Virus record (IMG/VR): IMGVR_UViG_3300040960_001030
Coordinates: 1 to 22,114 of that record
Origin: a virus
Reading direction: 5' to 3' (one strand)
Length of the DNA stretch: 22,114 nt
This document shows positions 12,512 to 21,725 of the stretch, piece after piece. The position numbers were made by a program, and so were the translations under genes. The notes under the pieces are model-generated. The model was not told the origin of the DNA, ran no database searches, and saw only the letters and a program-made list of their open reading frames with translations. Every line of letters starts with the position of its first letter. Position 1 is the first letter of the stretch.

Positions 12512-12538
12512 AGTGTTCTCCTGAACAGTTGTCGTAAT

Positions 12539-12595
12539 GTAACGCTACGGCCTAACTAATATTGGTAATCTGTATTAGGTTTGCCGTAACGCTAC
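12539..12595. repeat. GTAACGCTAC direct repeat in the HTH-gene leader
   Basis: The 10-mer GTAACGCTAC occurs at 12539-12548 and 12586-12595. The first is followed by GG and the second preceded by GCC, so each half is part of a GCCGTARCG-like site on opposite strands. Between them CTAATA (12555-12560) and TATTAG (12572-12577) form an imperfect inverted repeat. The stretch lies downstream of the -10 at 12607-12612 and before the HTH start. Confidence 0.6.
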
Positions 12596-12606
12596 AGAAC
12601 GGTATT

Positions 12607-12636
12607 ATTTTATCATGCCGACGGGGTGTGTGTCAA
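12607..12636 (-). promoter_or_regulatory. Strong sigma70-like extended -10 promoter for HTH-polymerase genes
   Basis: On the - strand TTGACA (12631-12636) and TAAAAT (12607-12612, 5/6) are 18 bases apart, and TG-A immediately precedes the -10, giving an extended -10 element. The -35 box includes the TGA stop of the RNR gene. The string CATGATAAAATA is shared exactly with the promoter at 16511-16539. Confidence 0.82.
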
Positions 12637-14543
12637 GCACCAGAGCCGACAACTTCACAAACACCACCAGTGCAGGCCAGCTCTTGGCTACCCGTAGTGG
12701 TGTCGCCACGCTCAAAGGCAGGTAGAGAGGCCCAGTCAATCTCAGGCATCTTAGCAGACAGCTCCTTATACTCCTGCTCCGTAAGCTCCTGATACGGCGC
12801 TTGACGGTACGTGCCGTTGTCGTAGGGCAGCAGACTGATACCAGACATGATGTCCCAGTTGTCCCAAATCCACTGGCATACAGCAAAGAATTCATCTTCC
12901 TTGTAGTACACCGTGATGGACGGCTTGTGTTCACACCAGTGTAACTGATACTGCTTCCACACTTCAAGCTGTCCGATAGCGCCCACATCATTGCGGAAGA
13001 TGGAGGTCTTCGGTGCTTCAATCGGGAAGCTGAACACGGTGGTGGTGTCAGGCTTCATGACGCACGGCTCATACGGTACGCCCTGGGCGCGCAGGAAGTC
13101 CGTCATGGGGTCTTTGTTGTCCTGCCGTACGGTGCGTACGTAGTACCGTGAGTAGTTGGGGTGGATGCCTGAAGCGCACAGCGCAAGCTGACTCACCGTA
13201 CCGCTAGGCTTGACGCACGTGATGGCCGCAGCAGGATTGATCTCAAGGCTCTCAGCCCACTGCTTGTTCACGTTGACGGCACGCTCACGCATGACAGTCA
13301 GCCACTCTTCAAGCTTCTTGTTACCCTTGCTGCCGTTAAGCACAGGGTGGTCCATGAGGCCCGTCAAGCTGACGCCAAGCAGCGCTTCCTCCTCGCAGTT
13401 CTTCTTCCACACAGAGCGGAGGTAACGGAAGTTAGTGAGCGTAGCTTGCAGCGTACCGAAAGCCGTAGCCACCTCCACCTTCTCCAGCAGTTGGTCAAGC
13501 GTATCGGTGGACCGTACAATCACTTCGCTCAGGTTGCAAAACTCAGCGGGGCGCAGGAGGATTTCGCTGCACGGGTTACACCCAAAGGCTGCGGTGTTGT
13601 CCCGCCGTCCGTTACGCCCCGCAATGTTGCGTGCTGCTTCCCGTGAGAAGATGCCACGCTCACCAGAGTAGCTCTCGTACAGCGCCTTCATCTCGCTCAT
13701 GAAGAACGGGAAGTCAGGCTTCTCGTCGTACACTGCGCTGTTGTTAGCGAGGGCACGCTGGCCGTTACGCTCCCACCACTGCCCAGACTTGGCTGCCTGC
13801 ATGCGGTCAGACACAGGGCTCGACAGGCTGATGAGGGCAGAGCGGCGCACACCACCCACCACCACGATCTCAGCGATCTTGCAGCAGATGTCATGGCACT
13901 CTAGGTCGGTGAGCTTCCTACCCGCAGCGCCCTTGAACACGTCCACAAGGAAGCGGTGCAGGTCTTCCAGCGGCTCCGGCCCAGACGCCCTGCCGCCAAA
14001 GGTTTTCAGGCGTGCGCCAGCGGGGCGTACCTGGGAGTAGTCCAGCTTGGGCACCTCGCCAGCGTAGAGCATGGCGATTAGCTGTCGCGTACTCTTAGCC
14101 CAGCCAATCTTGCTGTCCGCTACGACAATCGTGGTGTCGGTATTGTCAAACTCTTCGGCCACGATGGGCAGCTTCTTGACTTCCTCACGCTCCACGCTGA
14201 AGCCTACGCCCGTTCCGCAGAGCAGGATGTACATCAGCTCGTCGAAAGCTTTCGGGTCATTGATGGCAAGGTAGGCGCAGTTGAAGCCGGCTACGTTGTC
14301 ACGGTCCAGCGCAGGGCCAGCCGTCATGAGGGCGCGCATGCTGGGCACAACCTCAAGGTTGCTGATAGCTTTCTTGAAGCGCGTTGCTTCATTGCTGCCG
14401 ATCATGCCCTTGTCTTTCCAGTAGTTTACGTAGCGGTTGACAGTCTCGTCCCACGTTTCGCGCCGCTGCTCGTCTTCCAGCCAGCGAGCGTAGCGACTAG
14501 CGTGGATGAACGCGCTGTAGCTTGGGTTGCTTGTCGGAATCAT
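12633..14543 (-). CDS. nrdJ: Adenosylcobalamin-dependent (class II) ribonucleotide reductase
   Basis: 636 residues, resembling the monomeric RTPR of Lactobacillus leichmannii. Conserved catalytic residues: C89 (GFNCAY) and C336 (EFCNLSE) as the active-site redox pair, C325 as the thiyl-radical cysteine in FGCNPCSEI with N323 and E327, and a C-terminal shuttle pair C624-x4-C629 (ACTGGVC). The C325-to-C336 spacing of 11 equals that of RTPR C408-C419. It reduces ribonucleotides to deoxyribonucleotides using coenzyme B12, needs no second subunit or oxygen, and takes electrons from thioredoxin. No B12 synthesis or uptake gene is visible, so the host must supply the cofactor. ATG 14543 has AAAGGAG six bases upstream. 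It is somewhat shorter than RTPR (739). Confidence 0.95.
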   Translation of the reverse strand: MIPTSNPSYSAFIHASRYARWLEDEQRRETWDETVNRYVNYWKDKGMIGSNEATRFKKAISNLEVVPSMRALMTAGPALDRDNVAGFNCAYLAINDPKAFDELMYILLCGTGVGFSVEREEVKKLPIVAEEFDNTDTTIVVADSKIGWAKSTRQLIAMLYAGEVPKLDYSQVRPAGARLKTFGGRASGPEPLEDLHRFLVDVFKGAAGRKLTDLECHDICCKIAEIVVVGGVRRSALISLSSPVSDRMQAAKSGQWWERNGQRALANNSAVYDEKPDFPFFMSEMKALYESYSGERGIFSREAARNIAGRNGRRDNTAAFGCNPCSEILLRPAEFCNLSEVIVRSTDTLDQLLEKVEVATAFGTLQATLTNFRYLRSVWKKNCEEEALLGVSLTGLMDHPVLNGSKGNKKLEEWLTVMRERAVNVNKQWAESLEINPAAAITCVKPSGTVSQLALCASGIHPNYSRYYVRTVRQDNKDPMTDFLRAQGVPYEPCVMKPDTTTVFSFPIEAPKTSIFRNDVGAIGQLEVWKQYQLHWCEHKPSITVYYKEDEFFAVCQWIWDNWDIMSGISLLPYDNGTYRQAPYQELTEQEYKELSAKMPEIDWASLPAFERGDTTTGSQELACTGGVCEVVGSGA

Positions 14544-14658
14544 TGTCTACTCCTTTGTTGAAATACATACGCTCTAGTTTGTCAAGCTTCTTAGACACTT
14601 GGTCTAGTAATCTTTCCAGCTCCTCGACACGAAGTGCTGAGGCGGGGGTCTGACGCAT
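14497..14658 (-). CDS. Small coiled-coil-like protein overlapping DUF1289 and RNR genes
   Basis: ATG 14658 has GGAGG seven bases upstream and opens 53 codons to TAG at 14497-14499. It overlaps the end of the DUF1289 gene by 55 bases and the RNR start by 47. The product has a heptad-like segment (RVEELERLLDQVSKKLDKLERM) predicted as a single coiled coil, encoded mostly in DNA not used by another gene. The strong SD and structured sequence make it a probable real gene; function is unknown. Confidence 0.58.
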   Translation of the reverse strand: MRQTPASALRVEELERLLDQVSKKLDKLERMYFNKGVDNDSDKQPKLQRVHPR

Positions 14659-14792
14659 TCTAATTCCTCCATAATTTGTTCACGCTGCTCGTCGGTGTAC
14701 CGTGACCAGCGCACGATTTGCTCCTTGGTTCTACCGCAGCCAGTGCACCTGTCCCCCATCAGCTCACACTCGCTGCGACACGGTGACTTCAT
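14604..14792 (-). CDS. DUF1289 domain protein (four-cysteine, possibly Fe-S or Zn)
   Basis: 62 residues. The N-terminal half is a clear DUF1289 match: SPC5RSEC9, then C16-T-G-C19-GRTKEQIVRW and DEQREQIMEEL. The four cysteines form a small metal site, described in the family as a predicted Fe-S protein, without a known role. ATG 14792 overlaps the helicase stop as ATGA. The C-terminal ~18 residues (VRPPPQHFVSRSW) exceed the domain and overlap the SD and start of the small coiled-coil gene. Sitting between primase-helicase and RNR, it may serve nucleotide reduction or replication, but this is only context. Confidence 0.85.
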   Translation of the reverse strand: MKSPCRSECELMGDRCTGCGRTKEQIVRWSRYTDEQREQIMEELECVRPPPQHFVSRSWKDY

Positions 14793-16486
14793 AGCGCCTC
14801 CTCCTCAGGCGGCGTGTACTCGCTGAGCCGTCCAGTCTCCATGTCGTAGAGCAGGTGACCGGCTGGTCCGGTGATGCCACTGAAGCGATTCTTAAGCACG
14901 CGAATGCGCGTGGTGTTGCGTTCAGTTGCACTTTCAGCTTGGCCGTTACGCTCCAAGCCGATTACAAAGTCGCTGAGCTGAGCGATGGACGCACTGCCCC
15001 GCAGTTGCGACACAGACGTAACCGCTCCATCCTCGTGGCCCTTGCCGTCAGGGCGCTTGAGGTGTGACACAGCGAACAGCACAATGCCCGTGTCCTGCGT
15101 AAGCGTGCGCAGCTTAGTCATGATTTCGTCAAGGGCTTTACGCTCGTCGCCTTGCTGCCCAGCAGAAACCAGGATTGATATATGGTCAAGGACGATGACG
15201 TTACAGTCCAGCGCCTTAGCCATGAAGCGTACACGGGACACAACATCGTCAACGCTAGCGCCAATGTCGAAGCCAGCGTCCATGATGAACAGCCTGTCGT
15301 CCCCATACACACGGTCGTAGCAGTCTAGCCAGTCCTGAGAGCCACGTTCCACCTTGCTGATGGGCAGATGTAGCGGGGTTTCTAGGTCCACGCTCATGAA
15401 GCCTTCAGCGGTACGCTCGACGCTCTCCTCCATGAACAGGCAGCCGATACGATTGTCCGTGGTGTTCTTGATGTGCATCACAATCTCACGCAGGATGGAC
15501 GATTTGCCCAGCCCGCTACCTGCCGTGATGGTGACCAGCTCCGTAGGGCGGAAGCCGTAGGTTAGTTCATTCAGCTTAGTCCACGGGTAGTCGCCAAGCT
15601 TGCGTGGCTTAGGCGCTAGCAAGCGCTCAAGCAGCTCCTCCTTGGACAGCACACCCTTCGGCGTATACAGCGACGCCTGCCAGAACGCATCCGTAAACTC
15701 CTTCTTACGGCCAGCCTTGAGGTAGTCGCACGCATCCTTGCCAAGCCGTGCGTCAAGCTTCATGACACGCAGCTTACCAGCGAATACTTCAGCAGCTTTC
15801 TCAATGCCTTCGCGTCCTGGTTCGTCAGCGTCAAAGCACAAGATGATTTCATCGAAGCCATCAAGGAAATTGTACGCTGCCTTGAAGTCACGCCCTGCAC
15901 CAGCAGCGCCAGACTTTAGGGACACCACAGGCGACTTACCATCGAACAGTTGATTAGCCGCAATGGCGTCAAGCTCACCTTCAGTGACCACGATACGCCG
16001 CTGCTCGTGGTTACCGTAACGCTGCTGACCAAAGAGGCCAGCGTCCTTGGTGTTACCTACAACAGTGAAACCTTTGGTGCTGACGGTGCGTACCTTGAAG
16101 CCGATAGGCTGGCTGCTGTCTTCACCAAAGTAGGGATAGTAATGCTTATCTCCGTCAACAATAACACCGTAATGTTTGGCGTACGTTGACGTAATGTTGC
16201 GCTCTGGGATGCTAGACGCAGGCGCTTCGGCCCACTTAGCAATCAAGCGCTCAAGCTCTAGGTCTTTCGTAAGTGTTACGCTAGGTGTGTCGATAGGTTT
16301 CTCCGTGCCGAAGGAACGCTCCGGTTTGATGAACGGTACGGTGTTGTCGTTACGTGGCGCTGGCGTGTGCTTCTCGCAAGCGAAACAAAACTTACTACCG
16401 TTACTGTATACTGCGTTAGCGTCGCTGCTACCGCAAGCTTCACAGCCCTCGTGTTTAACGAAGGTAGATTCGCTAGTGTTATACAT
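14789..16486 (-). CDS. Bifunctional primase-helicase (T7 gp4 / Twinkle-like)
   Basis: 565 residues. An N-terminal zinc ribbon has C15-x-x-C18 and C34-x-x-C37. The TOPRIM primase core has E169 (VTEGELDA) and D219-A-D221 (CFDADEPG). After a linker (~275-300) comes a DnaB/RecA-type helicase: Walker A GSGLGKS (323-329), an E353/E354 segment (FMEES), Walker B D434 (VIVLDH), the SQLRGSASIAQLSD segment (493-506), and R534 (LKNRFSG), probably the arginine finger. It unwinds DNA as a hexameric ring and primes the lagging strand with the neighbouring polymerase. ATG 16486 has GGAGG five bases upstream and is first gene behind the promoter at 16511-16539. Its full primase set with zinc ribbon implies it can make primers itself. 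Confidence 0.96.
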   Translation of the reverse strand: MYNTSESTFVKHEGCEACGSSDANAVYSNGSKFCFACEKHTPAPRNDNTVPFIKPERSFGTEKPIDTPSVTLTKDLELERLIAKWAEAPASSIPERNITSTYAKHYGVIVDGDKHYYPYFGEDSSQPIGFKVRTVSTKGFTVVGNTKDAGLFGQQRYGNHEQRRIVVTEGELDAIAANQLFDGKSPVVSLKSGAAGAGRDFKAAYNFLDGFDEIILCFDADEPGREGIEKAAEVFAGKLRVMKLDARLGKDACDYLKAGRKKEFTDAFWQASLYTPKGVLSKEELLERLLAPKPRKLGDYPWTKLNELTYGFRPTELVTITAGSGLGKSSILREIVMHIKNTTDNRIGCLFMEESVERTAEGFMSVDLETPLHLPISKVERGSQDWLDCYDRVYGDDRLFIMDAGFDIGASVDDVVSRVRFMAKALDCNVIVLDHISILVSAGQQGDERKALDEIMTKLRTLTQDTGIVLFAVSHLKRPDGKGHEDGAVTSVSQLRGSASIAQLSDFVIGLERNGQAESATERNTTRIRVLKNRFSGITGPAGHLLYDMETGRLSEYTPPEEEAL

Positions 16487-16510
16487 TGTGTCCTCCGTAA
16501 AGGGCCTAAT

Positions 16511-16539
16511 ATTTTATCATGAATCGGAGCAAAAGTCAA
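16511..16539 (-). promoter_or_regulatory. Sigma70-like extended -10 promoter for primase-helicase and RNR
   Basis: On the - strand TTGACT (16534-16539, 5/6) and TAAAAT (16511-16516, 5/6) are 17 bases apart with TG-A just before the -10. The -35 box contains the TGA stop of the upstream gene. CATGATAAAATA is identical to the promoter before the HTH gene. The transcript would start about 20 bases before the primase-helicase ATG. Confidence 0.82.
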
Positions 16540-16721
16540 CGCTCAATCATCGACATCAAGAGGTTAGCCACTTTCTCTCCATACTCTTTAGTGATGTCAC
16601 GCATTGCAATTGTGGAGTCAGTCTCCGGGTTTGCTAGGTAGTGGTACAGTTCCTCCAGTTCTGGGCGTGTAATGTCCGTGTAGTGGTTACGTTCAGGCCC
16701 ACTCGTCGTAGTCGTGGTCAT
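16536..16721 (-). CDS. Hypothetical protein, 61 residues
   Basis: Not recognised. ATG 16721 has AGGAG ten bases upstream; a longer frame to 16880 is a shadow of the preceding gene. After a Thr run (MTTTTTSG) the protein is acidic and helical (ELEELYHYLANPETD, then MRDITKEYGEKVANLLMSMIE). It overlaps the end of the upstream gene by 29 bases, and its stop is part of the -35 box of the next promoter, so it is the last gene of the early leftward block. Confidence 0.65.
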   Translation of the reverse strand: MTTTTTSGPERNHYTDITRPELEELYHYLANPETDSTIAMRDITKEYGEKVANLLMSMIER

Positions 16722-17103
16722 CGTCGATGCGCTCCTCAGTGTCGTCATCATTGTAGTCTTTAAAGAAGTCCTGCTCAGCACGGCTGCGCAGCGGCCCGTC
16801 ACCGTGCATGTGTACGTCGTTACCATCCACCATGGAGTAGTCCCCGGACGTGGCAGACAGCAGCGCAAAGCGAGCGTCACGCGTGTCCTCCATGGTGTCC
16901 CAGGTTGTGGTGTCCATGACGGTTTCCAAGGTCAGCATCCTGTTCGCTACGCTACGGTTAGCTTCACGCTCAATGTTATGCTGCCGGTACTGCTCAGGCG
17001 TTATGGTTTGCACCGTGCCGCCTGCCGCCTCAAAGGCTGCGATGTCAGCGGCAAGGGCGCGGCGCTCCTCGTCCTTATCGTCGCGCTTCGTGTGTAGTGC
17101 CAT
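16693..17103 (-). CDS. Hypothetical acidic protein, 136 residues
   Basis: Not recognised. ATG 17103 with AGGAG six bases upstream. The N-terminal ~45 residues are charged and helical (KRDDKDEERRALAADIAAFEAAGG) followed by TVQTITPEQY, a pattern seen in short phage proteins of unknown role. The C-terminus is strongly acidic (DDDTEERIDDDHDYDEW), which resembles tails of DNA mimics or replisome-binding proteins, but such a role is only a guess. No membrane segment. Confidence 0.7.
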   Translation of the reverse strand: MALHTKRDDKDEERRALAADIAAFEAAGGTVQTITPEQYRQHNIEREANRSVANRMLTLETVMDTTTWDTMEDTRDARFALLSATSGDYSMVDGNDVHMHGDGPLRSRAEQDFFKDYNDDDTEERIDDDHDYDEWA

Positions 17104-17356
17104 GCCTCACTCCTATGCTCTGCCACGGCAGCGTGTTGATGCGTCCGTGTACTGTGCCCTTTACGTCACCGTGTATGTCACCGCCTACGCTGCCACCTAT
17201 GCTGCCCCAGACGCTGCCCTTGACGGTACCTTTGACGGTCAGGATGCGCCACTCCTTGCTCTTCGGCGTGTACTCAAAGTCAATCATATCCAGCACCTGC
17301 TCAAGCGTAGGGCGTGGGGCGTTAGGGTCTGGCTTTGTGACTTTATAGCTGCCCAT
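17075..17356 (-). CDS. Tetrapeptide-repeat protein 1
   Basis: 93 residues from ATG 17356, in TGATG overlap with the DUF551 stop and with GGAGG seven bases upstream; an in-frame start at 17440 is in shadow sequence. The N-terminus has PTLEQVLDMIDFEY, matching PTMQEVLELVAFD of the second repeat protein, so the two are paralogues. Residues 41-72 are eight units of V/I-x-G-x (VKGT VKGS VWGS IGGS VGGD IHGD VKGT VHGR). The C-terminus is basic (TLPWQSIGVRH). Regular V/I and Gly every four residues suggests a stacked beta arrangement. Proteins with similar G-x-V runs occur in other phages, from memory, without known function. Confidence 0.75.
   Translation of the reverse strand: MGSYKVTKPDPNAPRPTLEQVLDMIDFEYTPKSKEWRILTVKGTVKGSVWGSIGGSVGGDIHGDVKGTVHGRINTLPWQSIGVRHGTTHEARR
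17141..17236 (-). repeat. 12-bp tandem repeat array coding eight tetrapeptides
   Basis: Eight diverged 12-base units of the type (GTN)(NNN)(GGN)(RNN) encode residues 41-72 of repeat protein 1. Unit boundaries are codon-exact, so gain or loss of units would keep the frame. Confidence 0.75.
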
Positions 17357-17535
17357 CACTGCTCCTCCGGCGGTTCGGGTAGGGGCATCCAGTGGGTGGG
17401 TTTCCGGTAATCCCAGCCCGCCCACTTGCCCGACAACCAAAATGAGCTTTGGGCGTACATAAAGTACCCAAGGTTTATACCTAAAAGGATATGCTCACCA
17501 TCCCGTGGCGCTGTCTCAATCGGTTGCCAAGTCAT
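17356..17535 (-). CDS. DUF551 family protein
   Basis: 59 residues, ATG 17535 with GGAGGAGGAG just upstream and in ATGA overlap with the gene before. The DUF551 pattern is complete: W-Q-P-I-E-T-A-P-R-D-G at 3-13, ILLG, a Trp-rich middle, and the closing PTHWMPLPEPP at residues 46-56. The family is common in proteobacterial phages and prophages and has no established function. It sits between the two paralogous tetrapeptide-repeat genes. Confidence 0.9.
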   Translation of the reverse strand: MTWQPIETAPRDGEHILLGINLGYFMYAQSSFWLSGKWAGWDYRKPTHWMPLPEPPEEQ

Positions 17536-17942
17536 TGCTCCTCCTCCAACACCTTAATGGCTTCCTCCCCCCTGCCTTCTCGGATCAGGCGAATAGCGCG
17601 CTCTTTGGGGGTTTCCACAAATTGCCATTCACGCCCGTTGATTGTGCCCTGAACGTCGCCCCAGACGTTGCCCAAGACGTCGCCTTTGACACTGCCAAAG
17701 ACGCTGCCATAAACATTGGCCCAGACGCTGCCTTTGACGTTGCCTCCAACGTCGGCACAGACGCTGCCCCTGACGCAGCCCTGAACGTCGCCCCAGACAT
17801 CGCCACAGACCTTCTTCACGCGTAGGCTGCCATCCTTATCGCGATCAAACGCAACAAGCTCAAGCACTTCTTGCATCGTTGGTTCTTTCATTGCGAACTC
17901 TCCCTTTAGAGCAGCTATAAGTATGCGGTTCAATTCGTCCAT
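17532..17942 (-). CDS. Tetrapeptide-repeat protein 2
   Basis: 136 residues from ATG 17942, seven bases after a perfect AAGGAGG. GTG 17945 is too close to that SD. A second ATG at 17891 also has an SD (GGGAG) and would start just before PTMQEVL, so a shorter product is possible. Residues 45-104 are fifteen unbroken V-x-G-x units (VCGD VWGD VQGC ... VQGT INGR), twice the array of its paralogue. A helical C-terminus follows (ERAIRLIREGRGEEAIKVLEEE), which could mediate oligomerisation. It may form an elongated beta-solenoid-like rod or sheet, but no enzymatic motif is seen. The repeat carries several exposed aromatic residues at position 2 (W, Y, F). Confidence 0.78.
   Translation of the reverse strand: MDELNRILIAALKGEFAMKEPTMQEVLELVAFDRDKDGSLRVKKVCGDVWGDVQGCVRGSVCADVGGNVKGSVWANVYGSVFGSVKGDVLGNVWGDVQGTINGREWQFVETPKERAIRLIREGRGEEAIKVLEEEQ
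17631..17810 (-). repeat. 12-bp tandem repeat array coding fifteen tetrapeptides
   Basis: Fifteen consecutive 12-base units encode residues 45-104 of repeat protein 2. On the + strand the array reads as repeats like GACGYYGCCYWN. The units are diverged, so the array looks selected at protein level, not freshly expanded. Confidence 0.8.
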
Positions 17943-18247
17943 CACTTCTCCTCCTTTGCTTTTTCGATGGCGGCGTCCACTAGCCGGTCAACTTCGGCGA
18001 CCTCTGGCCATTCGGGACCGTTCCCACGATCCTCGCCAATCAGCATCCAGCCGCCGTCCCTGATCCACCTGTACCGTCTATCGTTCAGGTCCAGCTCTTC
18101 GATGCGGTCGGCTATGGCCTTTACAGACTCGGCGACATCGCAATGACAGTCAGGATCGTGCAAACGTCGGATTTTGTATGCGTCATGGCATCGGCACAGC
18201 ACAAGGTCTTGCAGTTCTGCGAGGGACTGCTTCACATCGTCACTCAT
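17942..18247 (-). CDS. Hypothetical protein, 101 residues (RYRW-type phage family)
   Basis: ATG 18247 with GGGAG six bases upstream; the longer frame to 18382 is shadow. Contains CRCHDAYKIRRLHDPDCHCD, a cluster of three Cys and three His that could bind zinc. It then has a helix (AESVKAIADRIEELD) leading to DRRYRWIRDGGWM and a C-terminal VDRLVDAAIEKA helix. The 'IEELxxxxxRYRWLRD ... LDxAIDxA' layout is shared by a common family of small phage proteins of unknown function (from memory). It belongs to the GATC-rich cassette together with the next upstream gene. Confidence 0.75.
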   Translation of the reverse strand: MSDDVKQSLAELQDLVLCRCHDAYKIRRLHDPDCHCDVAESVKAIADRIEELDLNDRRYRWIRDGGWMLIGEDRGNGPEWPEVAEVDRLVDAAIEKAKEEK

Positions 18248-18728
18248 GCTCCTCTCCCTTTGCTTTTGCGCGAGATGCATACCCGCAGACGGGGCAGTAA
18301 AAGACAACGCTCGCGTACTCGCCGTTTTCAACCCACAGCTTTCCATCTTCGTCCTCAAAGCAGACGTCAACGGCTTCCCCATGGCCTCCTGATTGTGAGT
18401 GCAGCTCGCAACGATGCCGCTCCTGCGGACCGCCGTTGACCCTCACCGTATGCCCCTTTGCTTTTGTGATAGCGGCGCGGGTTTTGTTGAGCAGCTTGAT
18501 CAGCCTAGGATCGTCATCAGCGCCAAACATCTTGATGAAATCCACAAGCGCCTCCAGCAGATCAGGCGCCGCAGCGATGAGGCGGGCGTCTTCTTCCCGC
18601 CCGATGGCGCCCCAAACCGCTTCAGGATCGCTCGCCGTTGCGACCCAACATTCGGCTTCCGGCGATCGGATGTCGTACCCATCGATCAATTCATAAACGA
18701 CCCACGGCCCCGGTGTGTGTTTACTCAT
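18240..18728 (-). CDS. HTPGPW-family protein fused to a zinc-ribbon module
   Basis: 162 residues, ATG 18728 in ATGA overlap. Residues 1-92 form the widespread phage HTPGPW module: KHTPGPWVV at 3-11, a short beta segment, EDARLIAAAPDLLEALVDF (46-64) and RAAITKAKG (84-92), where relatives normally stop. Residues ~103-162 are a second module, RHRC, VDVCF, KLWVENGEYASVVFYCPVCGY, a CxxC zinc-ribbon unit that in other phages is a separate small protein. The joint protein therefore looks like an in-frame fusion. Both modules lack a known function. It is part of a stretch with unusual GATC density, implying recent transfer. Confidence 0.83.
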   Translation of the reverse strand: MSKHTPGPWVVYELIDGYDIRSPEAECWVATASDPEAVWGAIGREEDARLIAAAPDLLEALVDFIKMFGADDDPRLIKLLNKTRAAITKAKGHTVRVNGGPQERHRCELHSQSGGHGEAVDVCFEDEDGKLWVENGEYASVVFYCPVCGYASRAKAKGEEHE

Positions 18729-18907
18729 TGCTCCTCCTCGCTACTCTCCGTAGCCTCAAGTCCCACCTCTATGGCACGCAGCACGCCCAAGCTAAGGAAA
18801 GCTTGCGCTGCTTTGCTGTCCATGTCAAGCACCACCGTAGCGCTGCCGTCTTCGTTCTCCACTACGTCAATCACCTCGACGTGAAACTCTTCATTCTGCT
18901 TGTTCAT
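18725..18907 (-). CDS. Small acidic conserved phage protein, 60 residues
   Basis: ATG 18907, seven bases after GGGAG; ATG 18913 is only one base from that SD, and the frame up to 18952 is shadow. Strands (FHVEVIDVVENEDGSATVVLDM) precede a helix (SKAAQAFLSLGVLRAIEVGLEA). Short phage proteins with this 'VEVxxxxEDGSAxVxxDM...A...L..xGxLRAIE' order are found in several marine phages as I recall, of unknown function. It overlaps both neighbours. Confidence 0.75.
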   Translation of the reverse strand: MNKQNEEFHVEVIDVVENEDGSATVVLDMDSKAAQAFLSLGVLRAIEVGLEATESSEEEQ

Positions 18908-19190
18908 ACGCATACTCCCACGCTTCGCGCAGTTCTTCGTAAAGGTGCACAAGGTCTGACATTAAAAAGTCTACATAAAAACAATTGATTGGCCTAATGT
19001 CGATGCCCTTCTCGTCAAACATTTCAGAGCATCTAATCTCAGCGATGCCCCCATCGCCGTCTGTATACAGAATGGCGGCGCCGCCAGAATAGCGCCAGTC
19101 GGTCCTCTCCATGTTCTGCGCCCAGTCCATAAGCGCCTGCTCTGATTCAAAACCGTAACGCTCAAGCAAGTCTTTACTGATGCCTTCCAT
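18891..19190 (-). CDS. Hypothetical protein, 99 residues
   Basis: Not recognised. ATG 19190 in TGATG overlap with the upstream gene and GGAGGAG five bases before it; the adjoining GTG 19193 is less well spaced. Acidic, mixed alpha/beta: a helix (KDLLERYGFESEQALMDWAQNM), a beta hairpin (GGAAILYTDGDGGIAEIRC), and a C-terminal helix (SDLVHLYEELREAWEYAYEQ). No motif pointing to activity. It overlaps the next gene's start by 17 bases. Confidence 0.72.
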   Translation of the reverse strand: MEGISKDLLERYGFESEQALMDWAQNMERTDWRYSGGAAILYTDGDGGIAEIRCSEMFDEKGIDIRPINCFYVDFLMSDLVHLYEELREAWEYAYEQAE

Positions 19191-19369
19191 CACTGCTCCT
19201 CCTCGTCAGCGTCCAGCATAACTTCAAGCGTATCAATAGCTTGCGCAATGTCAAGTAGCAAACGCGCTTCGTTGTCGGTGAGCTGATGCTCGACAACACG
19301 AAGCACAGCGTACGCGTTGGACAGTAGGTCAGCGGCACGGGCGCGTGCGTCAGTCAGTCGTGGGGTCAT
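19190..19369 (-). CDS. Small helical protein, 59 residues
   Basis: Not recognised. ATG 19369 with GGAG seven bases upstream, and TGA at 19190-19192 in TGATG overlap with the next gene. Almost wholly helical and amphipathic (TDARARAADLLSNAYAVLRVVEHQ, then NEARLLLDIAQAIDTLEVML), like a two-helix hairpin, with an acidic end. It fills what would otherwise be a 180-base gap in the operon. Confidence 0.68.
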   Translation of the reverse strand: MTPRLTDARARAADLLSNAYAVLRVVEHQLTDNEARLLLDIAQAIDTLEVMLDADEEEQ

Positions 19370-19457
19370 TCCAGCTCTCCTTAATCCATTCGTCGTAAGT
19401 TAAGAAACATTTCCGGTGATAGGACCAGAACCGACACTGCTTGTACACATCAGACAT
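19350..19457 (-). CDS. Possible 35-residue peptide gene
   Basis: ATG 19457 has GGAG six bases upstream and TGA at 19350-19352, overlapping the next gene's start. The peptide has CRFWSYHRKCFLTYDEWIKESW, rich in aromatic residues with two Cys, more structured than chance coding. It is the only plausible content of the gap 19370-19487. No known family recognised. Confidence 0.42.
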   Translation of the reverse strand: MSDVYKQCRFWSYHRKCFLTYDEWIKESWNDPTTD

Positions 19458-19487
19458 ACCATTCTCCATTACCAGTAATTAATTCAC

Positions 19488-19814
19488 TCATAACGCTATC
19501 ATCCTATGGTTGATAATGACTTGCACCGTCACGTCCCAATCGGTGGAATAAGCATACGCTGCGGCCATTTGTTTTGCAATCTCAATGACACGCTCGCGCA
19601 CGTCACCGTTCACGTGGTCGGACCAAAACGGTATGGTGATGACGGGCTCTCTGCTACAGTCGCAGTAAATCTTTATCAGAGCGTCCATATCGAAGCTCTC
19701 AGGCGACGTAAAGGGGTTAGGCATAGGACCGTACTGCCTAGCCTCAGCGGCCCGCACAGCGGCTTCTGCGGCGTCCTGCCCTGCCTGGATTAGTTCTGCT
19801 GTCGTCATGGTCAT
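19488..19814 (-). CDS. Hypothetical protein, 108 residues
   Basis: ATG 19814 with AAGGAG six bases upstream; a second ATG at 19808 is in frame. N-terminal Ala-rich helix (AELIQAGQDAAEAAVRAAEARQ), then a Pro-containing loop (YGPMPNPFTSPESFDMD), a CDCSREPVITIPFW segment, and VRERVIEIAKQMAAAYAYSTDWDVTVQVII. Family not recognised; soluble, slightly acidic. It follows a 38-base gap, so it is one of the few genes in the region not overlapping its upstream neighbour. Confidence 0.7.
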   Translation of the reverse strand: MTMTTAELIQAGQDAAEAAVRAAEARQYGPMPNPFTSPESFDMDALIKIYCDCSREPVITIPFWSDHVNGDVRERVIEIAKQMAAAYAYSTDWDVTVQVIINHRMIAL

Positions 19815-19852
19815 GGGTTGCTCCTTTGCTTTTGCACTAAGTCAGTCACGGC

Positions 19853-20050
19853 TCAAGCCCCGTACCAGTCCAGCACGCGCTCAAGCGCTTTTACCAAACG
19901 CTTCACTTGCTTCCTGTCCTCGTCGTAGTCGAAAGAGAACGTCCCCACCCTGCCCTCTTCCAAGTCCTGCTTAAAATAGCTAAGCTGTGCGGACAGCTCT
20001 TTGATTATGATGTCGTTTAATTGCTCGTCGCATATTTCAATGGTCATCAT
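19853..20050 (-). CDS. Small conserved phage protein, 65 residues
   Basis: ATG 20050 with CGGAG eight bases upstream. The order 'mTIEI.DEQLNDIIIKELSAQLSYFKQDLE', an acidic turn (FDYDEDRKQVKRLVKALERVLDWY) and a short length match a widespread family of phage proteins of unknown function in which a beta start leads to two helices with a 'D...KxLxxALxxVLxWY' close. First gene after the 115-bp gap with direct repeats, so it may be under separate control. Confidence 0.78.
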   Translation of the reverse strand: MMTIEICDEQLNDIIIKELSAQLSYFKQDLEEGRVGTFSFDYDEDRKQVKRLVKALERVLDWYGA

Positions 20051-20165
20051 AGCTTACACTCCGTTTGAACTGTTAAGTAATCCTTACACGTTGCACTTTA
20101 CTGCGCATAGTTTGCGGTGATTCGCGCACTTTTCTGCGCATAGCGTGGGCCGTAGCGGCACACAC
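20051..20165. promoter_or_regulatory. Intergenic control stretch with 18-bp direct repeats
   Basis: The longest gene-free gap inside the early operon. GCACTTTWCTGCGCATAG occurs at 20093-20110 and 20126-20143 (17/18 identical, 33 bases apart). The second copy also allows a GCGCA/TGCGC hairpin (20124-20128 with 20135-20139). A GCCGTAGCG motif is at 20149-20157. I find no convincing -35/-10 pair on the - strand. Probably operator or transcript-control sites. Confidence 0.6.
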
Positions 20166-20450
20166 TCACAGCCCATACTCTTCCTGCCAGTCCGTTATAG
20201 CTTCCATGTAGTCGTCAATAGCTTGATAATACTTCGCGTCTAGCGCTGCCGCCAGCTCCTCTTCAAAGCCCGTGAAGCGCTTGCCAATGGCCAGCAGCAG
20301 CGGCGTCAGGTCGTCGCCTATGGGAATGTACAGCTCGTCTGAATCGCCTGCCGCTATGGTTTCGCGGAGCCACTCTTGCGCCAACCCTTCCCGAATCTTA
20401 GCTTTCTCGCATAGCCATTCGTAGTTGTCGTCATAGTCTATATTAGCCAT
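20166..20450 (-). CDS. Hypothetical acidic protein, 94 residues
   Basis: Not recognised. ATG 20450 with GAGG eight bases upstream, overlapping the upstream stop by eight bases. Acidic, helical: DNYEWLCEKAKIREGLAQEWLRETIAAGD, an SDELYIPIGDDLTPLLLAIGKRF middle and a C-terminal helix (DAKYYQAIDDYMEAITDWQEEY). No transmembrane segment. The leader sequence GAGGGCAGCACA before its ATG is identical to that before the gene at 21182-21349, a duplicated initiation site. Confidence 0.7.
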   Translation of the reverse strand: MANIDYDDNYEWLCEKAKIREGLAQEWLRETIAAGDSDELYIPIGDDLTPLLLAIGKRFTGFEEELAAALDAKYYQAIDDYMEAITDWQEEYGL

Positions 20451-21639: not shown

Positions 21640-21692
21640 GCACTATTTGCGACCGTTCGTCGGCGGGGCATGATGCACATAGCGTGCCAAGT

Positions 21693-21725
21693 GGTGGCGC
21701 GATGGTGGCGCGATGGTGGCGTGGC
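21693..21725 (+). repeat. GGTGGCGCGAT iteron-like tandem repeats
   Basis: Two perfect 11-base copies (21693-21703, 21704-21714) and a third partial copy starting GGTGGCG (21715-21721), followed by further GTGGCG and CGTGGCGGC words to about 21740. Tandem spacing of one helical turn is typical of initiator or regulator binding. Confidence 0.7.

What the first reader, a model, noticed from the sequence alone, without database searches (positions are those of the whole stretch)
17075..17942. Twin genes for tetrapeptide (V-x-G-x) repeat proteins flanking a DUF551 gene
Two paralogues share an N-terminal PT-[LM]-x-x-VL motif and carry 8 and 15 uninterrupted four-residue units coded by 12-bp tandem repeats. 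A four-residue period differs from the five-residue quadrilateral helix of pentapeptide-repeat proteins and the six-residue left-handed beta helix. Array length differs two-fold between copies, so unit number can change in frame. This could be an undescribed repeat fold, perhaps a DNA-mimic rod, filament or decoy.
Basis: partly seen in the sequence, partly recalled or inferred. Interest (0 to 1): 0.72.

Follow-up and report, generated by a model that had tools for sequence, protein, structure and literature searches.

The report
Phage proteins with variable-length repeat rods
Two small neighbouring phage genes belong to an undescribed family of proteins made of a four-residue repeat between conserved end pieces, whose repeat number differs widely between relatives; this may let the phage adjust the protein's length, but what the protein does is not known.

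Summary
Two minus-strand genes in one coupled operon encode period-4 arrays (G-[DNS]-V-x), 8 and 15 units, with a DUF551 gene between them; shuffles exclude chance. They belong to a family without an informative database hit, found here on 42 viral contigs or records (37 clusters of 48 unique ORFs). An N-cap (TLEEaLkLVxF...W.V) and often a C-cap (INGReWxFvETPkeKLqRLI) flank the array. Among ORFs not cut by a contig end, the spacing-4 chain runs from 3 to 50. V and G positions resist replacement; the two x positions vary. Two contigs 99.2% identical differ by exactly one 12-bp unit within this gene; others differ by 2 or 11 units. The shorter window protein keeps 8 units in six relatives. AlphaFold gives a low-to-moderate-confidence beta-rod with a helical-hairpin C-cap. 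A second unnamed small family ("ADWQ") lies within 400 bp of it on 19 of 68 ADWQ-bearing records, once fused to it. Best working model: a length-adjustable rod between caps in a host-takeover or counter-defence protein, by analogy to mycobacteriophage Tweety gp54. That function is inferred, not shown. DNA mimicry is unlikely because the shorter twin is basic.

The parts
17532..17942 (-). Longer repeat protein (136 aa from ATG 17942; in-frame GTG at 17945 and in-frame ATG at 17891 are alternative starts)
   Evidence: ATG 17942 preceded by AAAGGAGG and overlapping the upstream stop; relative L024 starts at the MKEPTM position
17814..17891 (-). N-cap of longer protein (MKEPTMQEVLELVAFDRDKDGSLRVK)
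   Evidence: alignments; N-cap profile
17634..17813 (-). 15-unit tetrapeptide array (x-V-x-G), 12-bp DNA units
17535..17642 (-). C-cap of longer protein (INGREWQFVETPKERAIRLIREGRGEEAIKVLEEEQ), predicted helical hairpin; overlaps the last unit
17356..17535 (-). DUF551 protein gene, coupled to the repeat gene before it (ATGA) and after it (TGATG)
   Evidence: a DUF551-like ORF also follows the repeat gene in phage DB2 (L002), by regular expression and BLAST, not by Pfam (one search gave no Pfam hit for it)
17075..17356 (-). Shorter repeat protein (93 aa, basic)
   Evidence: relatives L016-L021
17240..17317 (-). N-cap of shorter protein
17144..17239 (-). 8-unit tetrapeptide array of shorter protein
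   Evidence: dN/dS 0.05-0.10 against the window copy
17078..17143 (-). C-terminal end of shorter protein (RINTLPWQSIGVRHGTT...), only the start resembles the C-cap
17942..18382 (-). Upstream operon gene whose stop overlaps the longer protein's ATG (first ATG of the open frame at 18382; its true start was not settled)
   Evidence: weak PHROG 4029, unknown function
16693..17103 (-). Downstream gene overlapping the shorter protein's end
   Evidence: weak PHROG 9129, unknown function

Best explanation
The twins are members of an undescribed family of small phage accessory proteins. Each has an N-cap (short helix plus beta hairpin), an array of four-residue G-[DNS]-V-x units and, in many members, a C-cap (last strand INGReW plus helical hairpin). 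V and G form the structural core and the two x positions are exposed and free to change. Array length is altered by gain or loss of whole 12-bp units, so the reading frame survives. I think most likely that the array is a rod, that the caps carry the binding activity and that the rod sets their spacing, in a protein made in the cell during infection and aimed at a host target, perhaps a defence component, as proposed for Tweety gp54, whose tetrapeptide number tunes counter-defence. Shown: family, caps, conservation pattern, unit-number differences, operon coupling, recurrent ADWQ neighbour. Predicted only: beta rod and helical C-cap. Inferred only: exposure of x positions, spacing as the selected property, host target, counter-defence.
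For: Cap-profile hits on 48 unique ORFs whose chain runs from 3 to 50 when ORFs cut by contig ends and the doubtful L098 are set aside, including a 62-aa member that keeps the C-cap and the helix part of the N-cap with about 2 units. Replacements: V 0/61, G 3/61, x(-1) 14/61, x(+1) 14/61; Fisher p 1.1e-6, treating sites as independent although three of them are one site in three related contigs. Array dN/dS 0.05-0.10 for the shorter protein against six relatives, some identical to each other in the array. One-unit 12-bp indel between two contigs 99.2% identical by blastn; 2-unit difference L026/L032 and 11-unit duplication in L006. Long ORFs scanned near the genes are polymerase, primase, helicase, terminase or sigma-factor genes. 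The longer gene is missing at that place in L016, L019 and L021, so it is accessory. ADWQ within 400 bp on 19 of 68 ADWQ-bearing records, fused in L100. AlphaFold: C-cap blocks 77-88, period-4 beta bridges. Tweety gp54: PMC2884959 and PMC9262239, passages read.
Against: No functional evidence for this family; no PADLOC hit for the 10 proteins scanned. Tweety gp54 has a different repeat (AA-x-x) and homology to it was not tested. The shorter window protein has 8 units in all six relatives, against a freely tuned length. Array model confidence is low (block pLDDT 51-75), residues about 94-130 of the second model have no strand, and it found no PDB match. 17 of 48 ORFs have only the N-cap hit, so a two-cap design does not hold for every member. 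The 12-bp indel and the 11-unit duplication come from metagenome assemblies, and the duplication lies at a contig end. 23 of 42 cap-family records show no ADWQ gene in the stretch held, the window included.
Confidence: 0.33

Rival explanations
1. The caps do all the work and the array is a tolerated, largely passive linker that grows and shrinks by slippage; its length is not selected.
For: A member with only about 2 units exists; unit number differs widely among relatives; no supra-period in the array; low AlphaFold confidence in the arrays.
Against: V and G positions are strongly conserved, array dN/dS is 0.05-0.10, and the shorter protein has 8 units in six relatives.
Confidence: 0.25
2. 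It is a trimeric, intertwined beta prism like the C-terminal needle of T4 gp5 and acts in or on the virion.
For: Units read V-x-G-[DNS]; gp5 repeats read VxGxxxxx (PMC4576200, one passage read) and the aligned gp5 stretch has V-x-G-[ND] about every eight residues. phrog_430 (hub/lysozyme) matches 4 of 30 members (best E 1.2e-6) and L022 at 4.2e-10. Cyanophage S-RIM2 structural protein contains VTGN/VTGD arrays.
Against: In the PDB sequence search, unrelated GQMP and NGHM low-complexity repeats outscore gp5, so these scores mostly reflect glycine spacing. Period is 4, not 8. The genes are small, and the long ORFs scanned nearby were not tail genes, though only one or two per locus were scanned and S-SKS1 and L030 have an ORF within about 3 kb that looks fibre-like to me by eye (annotated hypothetical).
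Confidence: 0.15
3. It polymerises into a filament like a bactofilin.
For: Best VIA matches of the longer protein's model are bactofilins 6ria (Z 5.5, rmsd 3.3, 69 aligned) and 6rib (Z 5.3, rmsd 2.5, 64 aligned).
Against: Z under 8 is common for unrelated models by the tool's own note; Foldseek gave E 2.5 and 2.6 for them; no bactofilin profile among the Pfam hits of 30 members; the second model had no match. The C-cap would be expected to hinder end-to-end stacking (inference).
Confidence: 0.12
4. It is a DNA-mimic rod or decoy.
For: Members other than the shorter twin's group and L035 are acidic, pI 4.1-5.6.
Against: The shorter twin and its relatives are basic, as is L035; D makes up 29% of x(-1) and little of the other positions, so charge density is modest.
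Confidence: 0.05

Closest known systems
Mycobacteriophage Tweety gp54 (with Che8 gp57, PMC gp51)
   Same: Conserved N and C regions flank a tetrapeptide array of 12-bp units whose number differs between related phages; accessory gene (PMC2884959, passages). Changes in unit number overcome a prophage defence (PMC9262239, passages).
   Different: Repeat begins with two alanines and is described as of a kind common in unstructured proteins; no V/G pattern. Homology was not tested; hosts differ.
T4 gp5 C-terminal triple-stranded beta-helix
   Same: Contains V-x-G-[ND] elements; length can be extended by repeats (PMC4576200, one passage).
   Different: Period 8 rather than 4; homotrimeric part of a virion hub protein; the weak score is exceeded by unrelated low-complexity repeats.
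Bactofilins
   Same: Closest structural alignment of the longer protein's model (Z 5.5).
   Different: No sequence-family hit; weak Z; second model unmatched.
Pentapeptide-repeat and hexapeptide (left-handed beta-helix) proteins
   Same: Short-unit solenoids with about one unit per face (recalled).
   Different: Period 5 or 6; here 484 of 513 core-to-core steps are 4; no such Pfam hit.
Cyanomyophage S-RIM2 structural protein with VTGN/VTGD arrays
   Same: Same V-x-G-[ND] unit in runs of 12 and 16.
   Different: Large protein next to neck genes, no caps seen, x(+1) mostly T.

Membership tests
The capped tetrapeptide family described here | N-cap TLEEaLkLVxF...W.V before the array | tested here: met
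   Both window proteins align and match the N-cap profile, which was itself built with them
The capped tetrapeptide family described here | C-cap INGReWxFvETPkeKLqRLI after the array | tested here: inconclusive
   Met by the longer protein; the shorter has only IN...W. Of 48 unique ORFs, 26 have both cap hits, 17 N only, 5 C only, some cut by contig ends
Tweety gp54-like tunable counter-defence protein | Tetrapeptide array of variable number between conserved ends | tested here: met
   Met by the family; the shorter window protein itself shows no variation in six relatives
Tweety gp54-like tunable counter-defence protein | Repeat with two leading alanines | tested here: not met
   Unit is G-[DNS]-V-x; gp54 unit as described in PMC2884959
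Tweety gp54-like tunable counter-defence protein | Unit-number changes overcome a host or prophage defence | not testable with these tools
   Needs infection assays
Bactofilin | Bactofilin sequence profile (that Pfam holds one is recalled) | tested here: not met
   Not among hits of 30 members at E 0.01
Bactofilin | Bactofilin beta-helix fold | tested here: inconclusive
   Z 5.5 for one model, none for the other
T4 gp5 triple beta-helix | VxGxxxxx octapeptide period | tested here: not met
   Period 4
T4 gp5 triple beta-helix | Intertwined homotrimer | not testable with these tools
   Only monomer prediction available
Pentapeptide-repeat protein | Five-residue period | tested here: not met
   Period 4; no such Pfam hit
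Hexapeptide left-handed beta-helix | Six-residue period | tested here: not met
   Period 4; no such Pfam hit
DNA-mimic protein | Strong overall negative charge | tested here: not met
   Shorter protein net +4, pI 9.7; longer net -5, pI 4.9

The most novel reading that the evidence does not exclude
Marine phages carry a minimal beta-solenoid with one four-residue unit per face that serves as a molecular ruler: adding or removing 12-bp units resets the distance between two binding caps and so retunes a counter-defence or host-takeover complex, in many phages together with the ADWQ partner protein.
Probability: 0.15. Interest if true: 0.82.

Novelty: new variant of a known kind. Interest (0 to 1): 0.5.

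Why it matters
Only one tetrapeptide-array phage protein with a known role came up in my paper searches (Tweety gp54). An unrelated-looking family with ordered V/G units, conserved caps, a core chain from 3 to 50 and a recurring neighbour gene would make two things testable: whether phages use repeat number as a fast, frame-safe dial on anti-host proteins, and whether a four-residue beta-solenoid exists. It also gives profiles for small 'hypothetical' genes of marine phages.

Tried and rejected
Rejected: DNA mimic as a family-wide role (charges). Rejected as evidence: PDB sequence hits, since unrelated GQMP and NGHM low-complexity repeats rank above gp5; a search with the longer protein itself gave nothing better than E 0.044. 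Rejected: plasmid hits in Lactococcus and Enterococcus, which lie antisense to the annotated genes. Rejected: weak Gly-zipper, EF-hand and UmuD-like hits. Looked for a supra-period such as 3 units per coil: in 26 arrays, lags 1-12 of the x positions show nothing beyond z about 2.2, so the number of faces is not settled; the 36-base DNA period in TRF was not borne out in protein. tblastn of the shorter protein in the phage collection: no match at E 0.01. Megablast of the whole window in that collection: no match. Bacterial relatives: two genome-contig scans confirmed none; they rest on short patterns, so distant relatives could be missed. Foldseek gave no significant PDB match for either model, and in the viral library the best match of the longer protein's model was a Synechococcus phage S-SKS1 protein at E 0.018. 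Eight paper searches (open-licence PMC papers only) listed nothing describing this family. The PHROG and Pfam scans of ADWQ and neighbour proteins named none of the ADWQ proteins (one weak sub-threshold hit). L098 was flagged only by the N-cap profile (E 7.4e-6), lacks an array and is doubtful, but is counted among the 19 and the 42. The L029/L030 pair has phase slips that blur its position classes; without it the counts are V+G 1/110 and x 27/110.

Full report
WHAT IS THERE. Two minus-strand genes sit in one operon: the shorter (17075-17356, 93 aa) and the longer (ATG 17942 to 17532, 136 aa), with a DUF551 gene between them (17356-17535; PF04448 E 1.5e-7). Junctions overlap: the upstream gene's stop overlaps the longer gene's ATG, the longer gene and DUF551 share ATGA, DUF551 and the shorter gene share TGATG, and each of these three starts follows a GGAGG site. 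The longer array has 15 V/I at spacing 4, the shorter 9 (8 full units plus RINT). Residue shuffles reach neither in 20,000 trials each, and no other window ORF of 40 aa or more exceeds 7.

FAMILY. Neither protein has an informative hit in Pfam, PHROGs or NCBIfam. tblastn of the longer protein in 50,697 phage records matched 68: S-SKS1 (two records of one phage; 50% over residues 54-135), Octadecabacter phage DB2 (33%), and otherwise Synechococcus or marine-virus records in which the match covers only the array, 'structural protein' in those listed with annotation. The shorter protein had no match there. Seven scans of viral contigs brought in relatives. With N-cap and C-cap profiles run on the held sequence, 42 contigs or records carry a family ORF, counting the window, a longer contig identical to it over 7757 bases, several near-identical contig pairs and the doubtful L098. 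There are 48 unique ORFs in 37 clusters at 85% identity: 26 with both cap hits, 17 N-cap only, 5 C-cap only, some cut by contig ends. The profiles were built from these members, so this describes the family and is no independent test. Consensus: N-cap MTxQITLEEaLkLVxF...G.W.V..V, array, C-cap (G)TINGReWxFvETPkeKLqRLI. A variant group (L009, L010, L022, L037, L042) has a different N-cap and ends without the C-cap helices.

UNIT GRAMMAR. In 35 proteins, redundancy not removed, 478 inner units have D/N/S at x(-1) in 74%, V/I at the core in 97%, G at +2 in 85%, and a broad choice at +1. 484 of 513 core-to-core steps are 4; 19 are 3, and 10 of those 19 read V-G-x-[VI], as in L007, L008 and L024; a few steps counted here run into the caps. 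Replacements between internal duplicates and relatives: V 0/61, G 3/61, x(-1) 14/61, x(+1) 14/61 (Fisher 1.1e-6, sites treated as independent). No supra-unit period shows in 26 arrays, so all units look equivalent.

UNIT NUMBER. The longest uninterrupted chain runs from 3 to 50 when ORFs cut by contig ends and L098 are set aside. L037 and L038 are 99.2% identical over 4.6 kb by blastn; a whole-stretch alignment shows six substitutions, one 4-base indel outside the gene and one indel of exactly 12 bases, one unit, inside the array. L026 and L032 (86% identical) differ by 2 units. L006 carries a second copy of an 11-unit block that is single in the window, at a contig end. L022 has an internal 19-unit duplication. 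Pairs without a difference also exist: L022/L023, L024/L025 and L029/L030. And the shorter window protein has 8 units in all six relatives L016-L021, with array dN/dS 0.05-0.10 against the window copy and up to 0.15 between relatives; some of the six are identical to each other in the array. The longer gene is missing at that place in L016, L019 and L021. Metagenome assemblies can miscount repeats; reads were not available.

FOLD. AlphaFold of the longer protein (28-row alignment): mean pLDDT 74.7, pTM 0.44; blocks of ten give 67-75 in the array and 77-88 in the C-cap hairpin; beta bridges recur every four residues. AlphaFold of the long member L031: 69.1, pTM 0.35, array blocks 51-73, with no strand at residues about 94-130. 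Foldseek finds nothing significant in PDB for either. The VIA second look for the longer protein ranks bactofilin first (6ria Z 5.5, rmsd 3.3, 69 aligned; 6rib Z 5.3, rmsd 2.5, 64 aligned), then MinC (Z 4.0), all at levels the tool calls common for unrelated models; L031 gave none. I read this as a likely but unproven short-faced beta rod. Sequence hits to T4 gp5 are outranked by unrelated low-complexity proteins and carry little weight.

CONTEXT. In the window the genes lie upstream, on the same strand, of a gene matching phage primase/helicases and of a DNA polymerase gene. Long ORFs scanned elsewhere, one or two per locus and within about 5 kb: helicase (S-SKS1, L001), primase-like and polymerase (L008), primase and terminase (L009), polymerase (L024), terminase (L022), sigma factor (L011); one ORF each of L010 and L026 had no hit. 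A DUF551-like ORF follows the repeat gene in DB2 with a four-base overlap. A second small unnamed family, 'ADWQ' (..AADWQLEQViewL..AMRPT), recurs beside it: 68 contigs or records have ADWQ, 42 have the cap family, 19 have both, and in all 19 the nearest pair is within 400 bp. Sampling is biased, because the ADWQ queries came from family loci; of the 70 loci brought in by the ADWQ scans (L050-L119, some on the same contig), 20 hold a family member. In 50,697 phage records the L031 caps (E up to 1) and an ADWQ protein (E up to 0.01) each hit only S-SKS1. On contig L100 one ORF joins the N-cap, about 4 units, a stub of the C-cap (ETPKEKL) and ADWQ from its AADWQ motif to its end; it lies near the contig's start, so an assembly fault is not excluded. 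The window shows no ADWQ gene.

MECHANISM. The caps persist when the array shrinks to about two units, the V/G frame is conserved, and length varies by whole units. The simplest reading is that caps bind and the rod spaces them. The documented precedent is Tweety gp54, where phages with more or fewer tetrapeptides overcome a prophage defence (PMC9262239, passages; PMC2884959, passages). This family works, I propose, in a similar way, but it is not shown to be a member: its repeat differs and no phenotype is known. I give about 0.6 to an ordered beta rod, about 0.3 to length as a selected, host-directed property, and less to any specific target.

VERDICT. A real, undescribed family with good sequence evidence and an unproven function: a new variant of a known kind.

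Noticed in passing
L007:408-689, L008:4422-4679, L011:5231-5485, L029:4759-5007, L001:2310-2552 and others: A second unannotated small family ('ADWQ', AADWQLEQV...AMRPT), often in several copies per phage and next to the repeat genes; one fusion with a repeat gene in L100:2-394.
   Followed up: partly
L029:4759, L031:5283, L011:5231, L027:3286 and window 17535: The C-terminal tails (such as QLEDN, VLEEEQ) encode a GGAG-type ribosome-binding site followed by an overlapping stop/start, so part of the tail conservation may serve the next gene.
   Followed up: partly
L003:1-3915 and L004:2385-7250: A cyanophage structural protein and an unannotated marine-virus ORF carry arrays of the same V-x-G-[ND] unit (VTGN/VTGD), without the caps as far as seen.
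   Followed up: no
window 17505-17825 (+) and antisense frames of other members: The strand opposite the arrays is open and gives A/D-rich repeats; such antisense ORFs cluster across 12 phage groups and are probably a by-product of the codon pattern.
   Followed up: no
window 21692-21721: Perfect 11-bp tandem repeat TGGTGGCGCGA, 2.7 copies.
   Followed up: no
window 12535-20291: A 7757-base stretch of contig IMGVR_UViG_3300040808_000573 (31,846 bases) matches the window at 100%, so the window is probably part of, or the same virus as, that longer contig.
   Followed up: no
L025:5861-5976: A further family ORF begins at the contig end downstream of the L024/L025 repeat gene, cut after 38 residues.
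   Followed up: no
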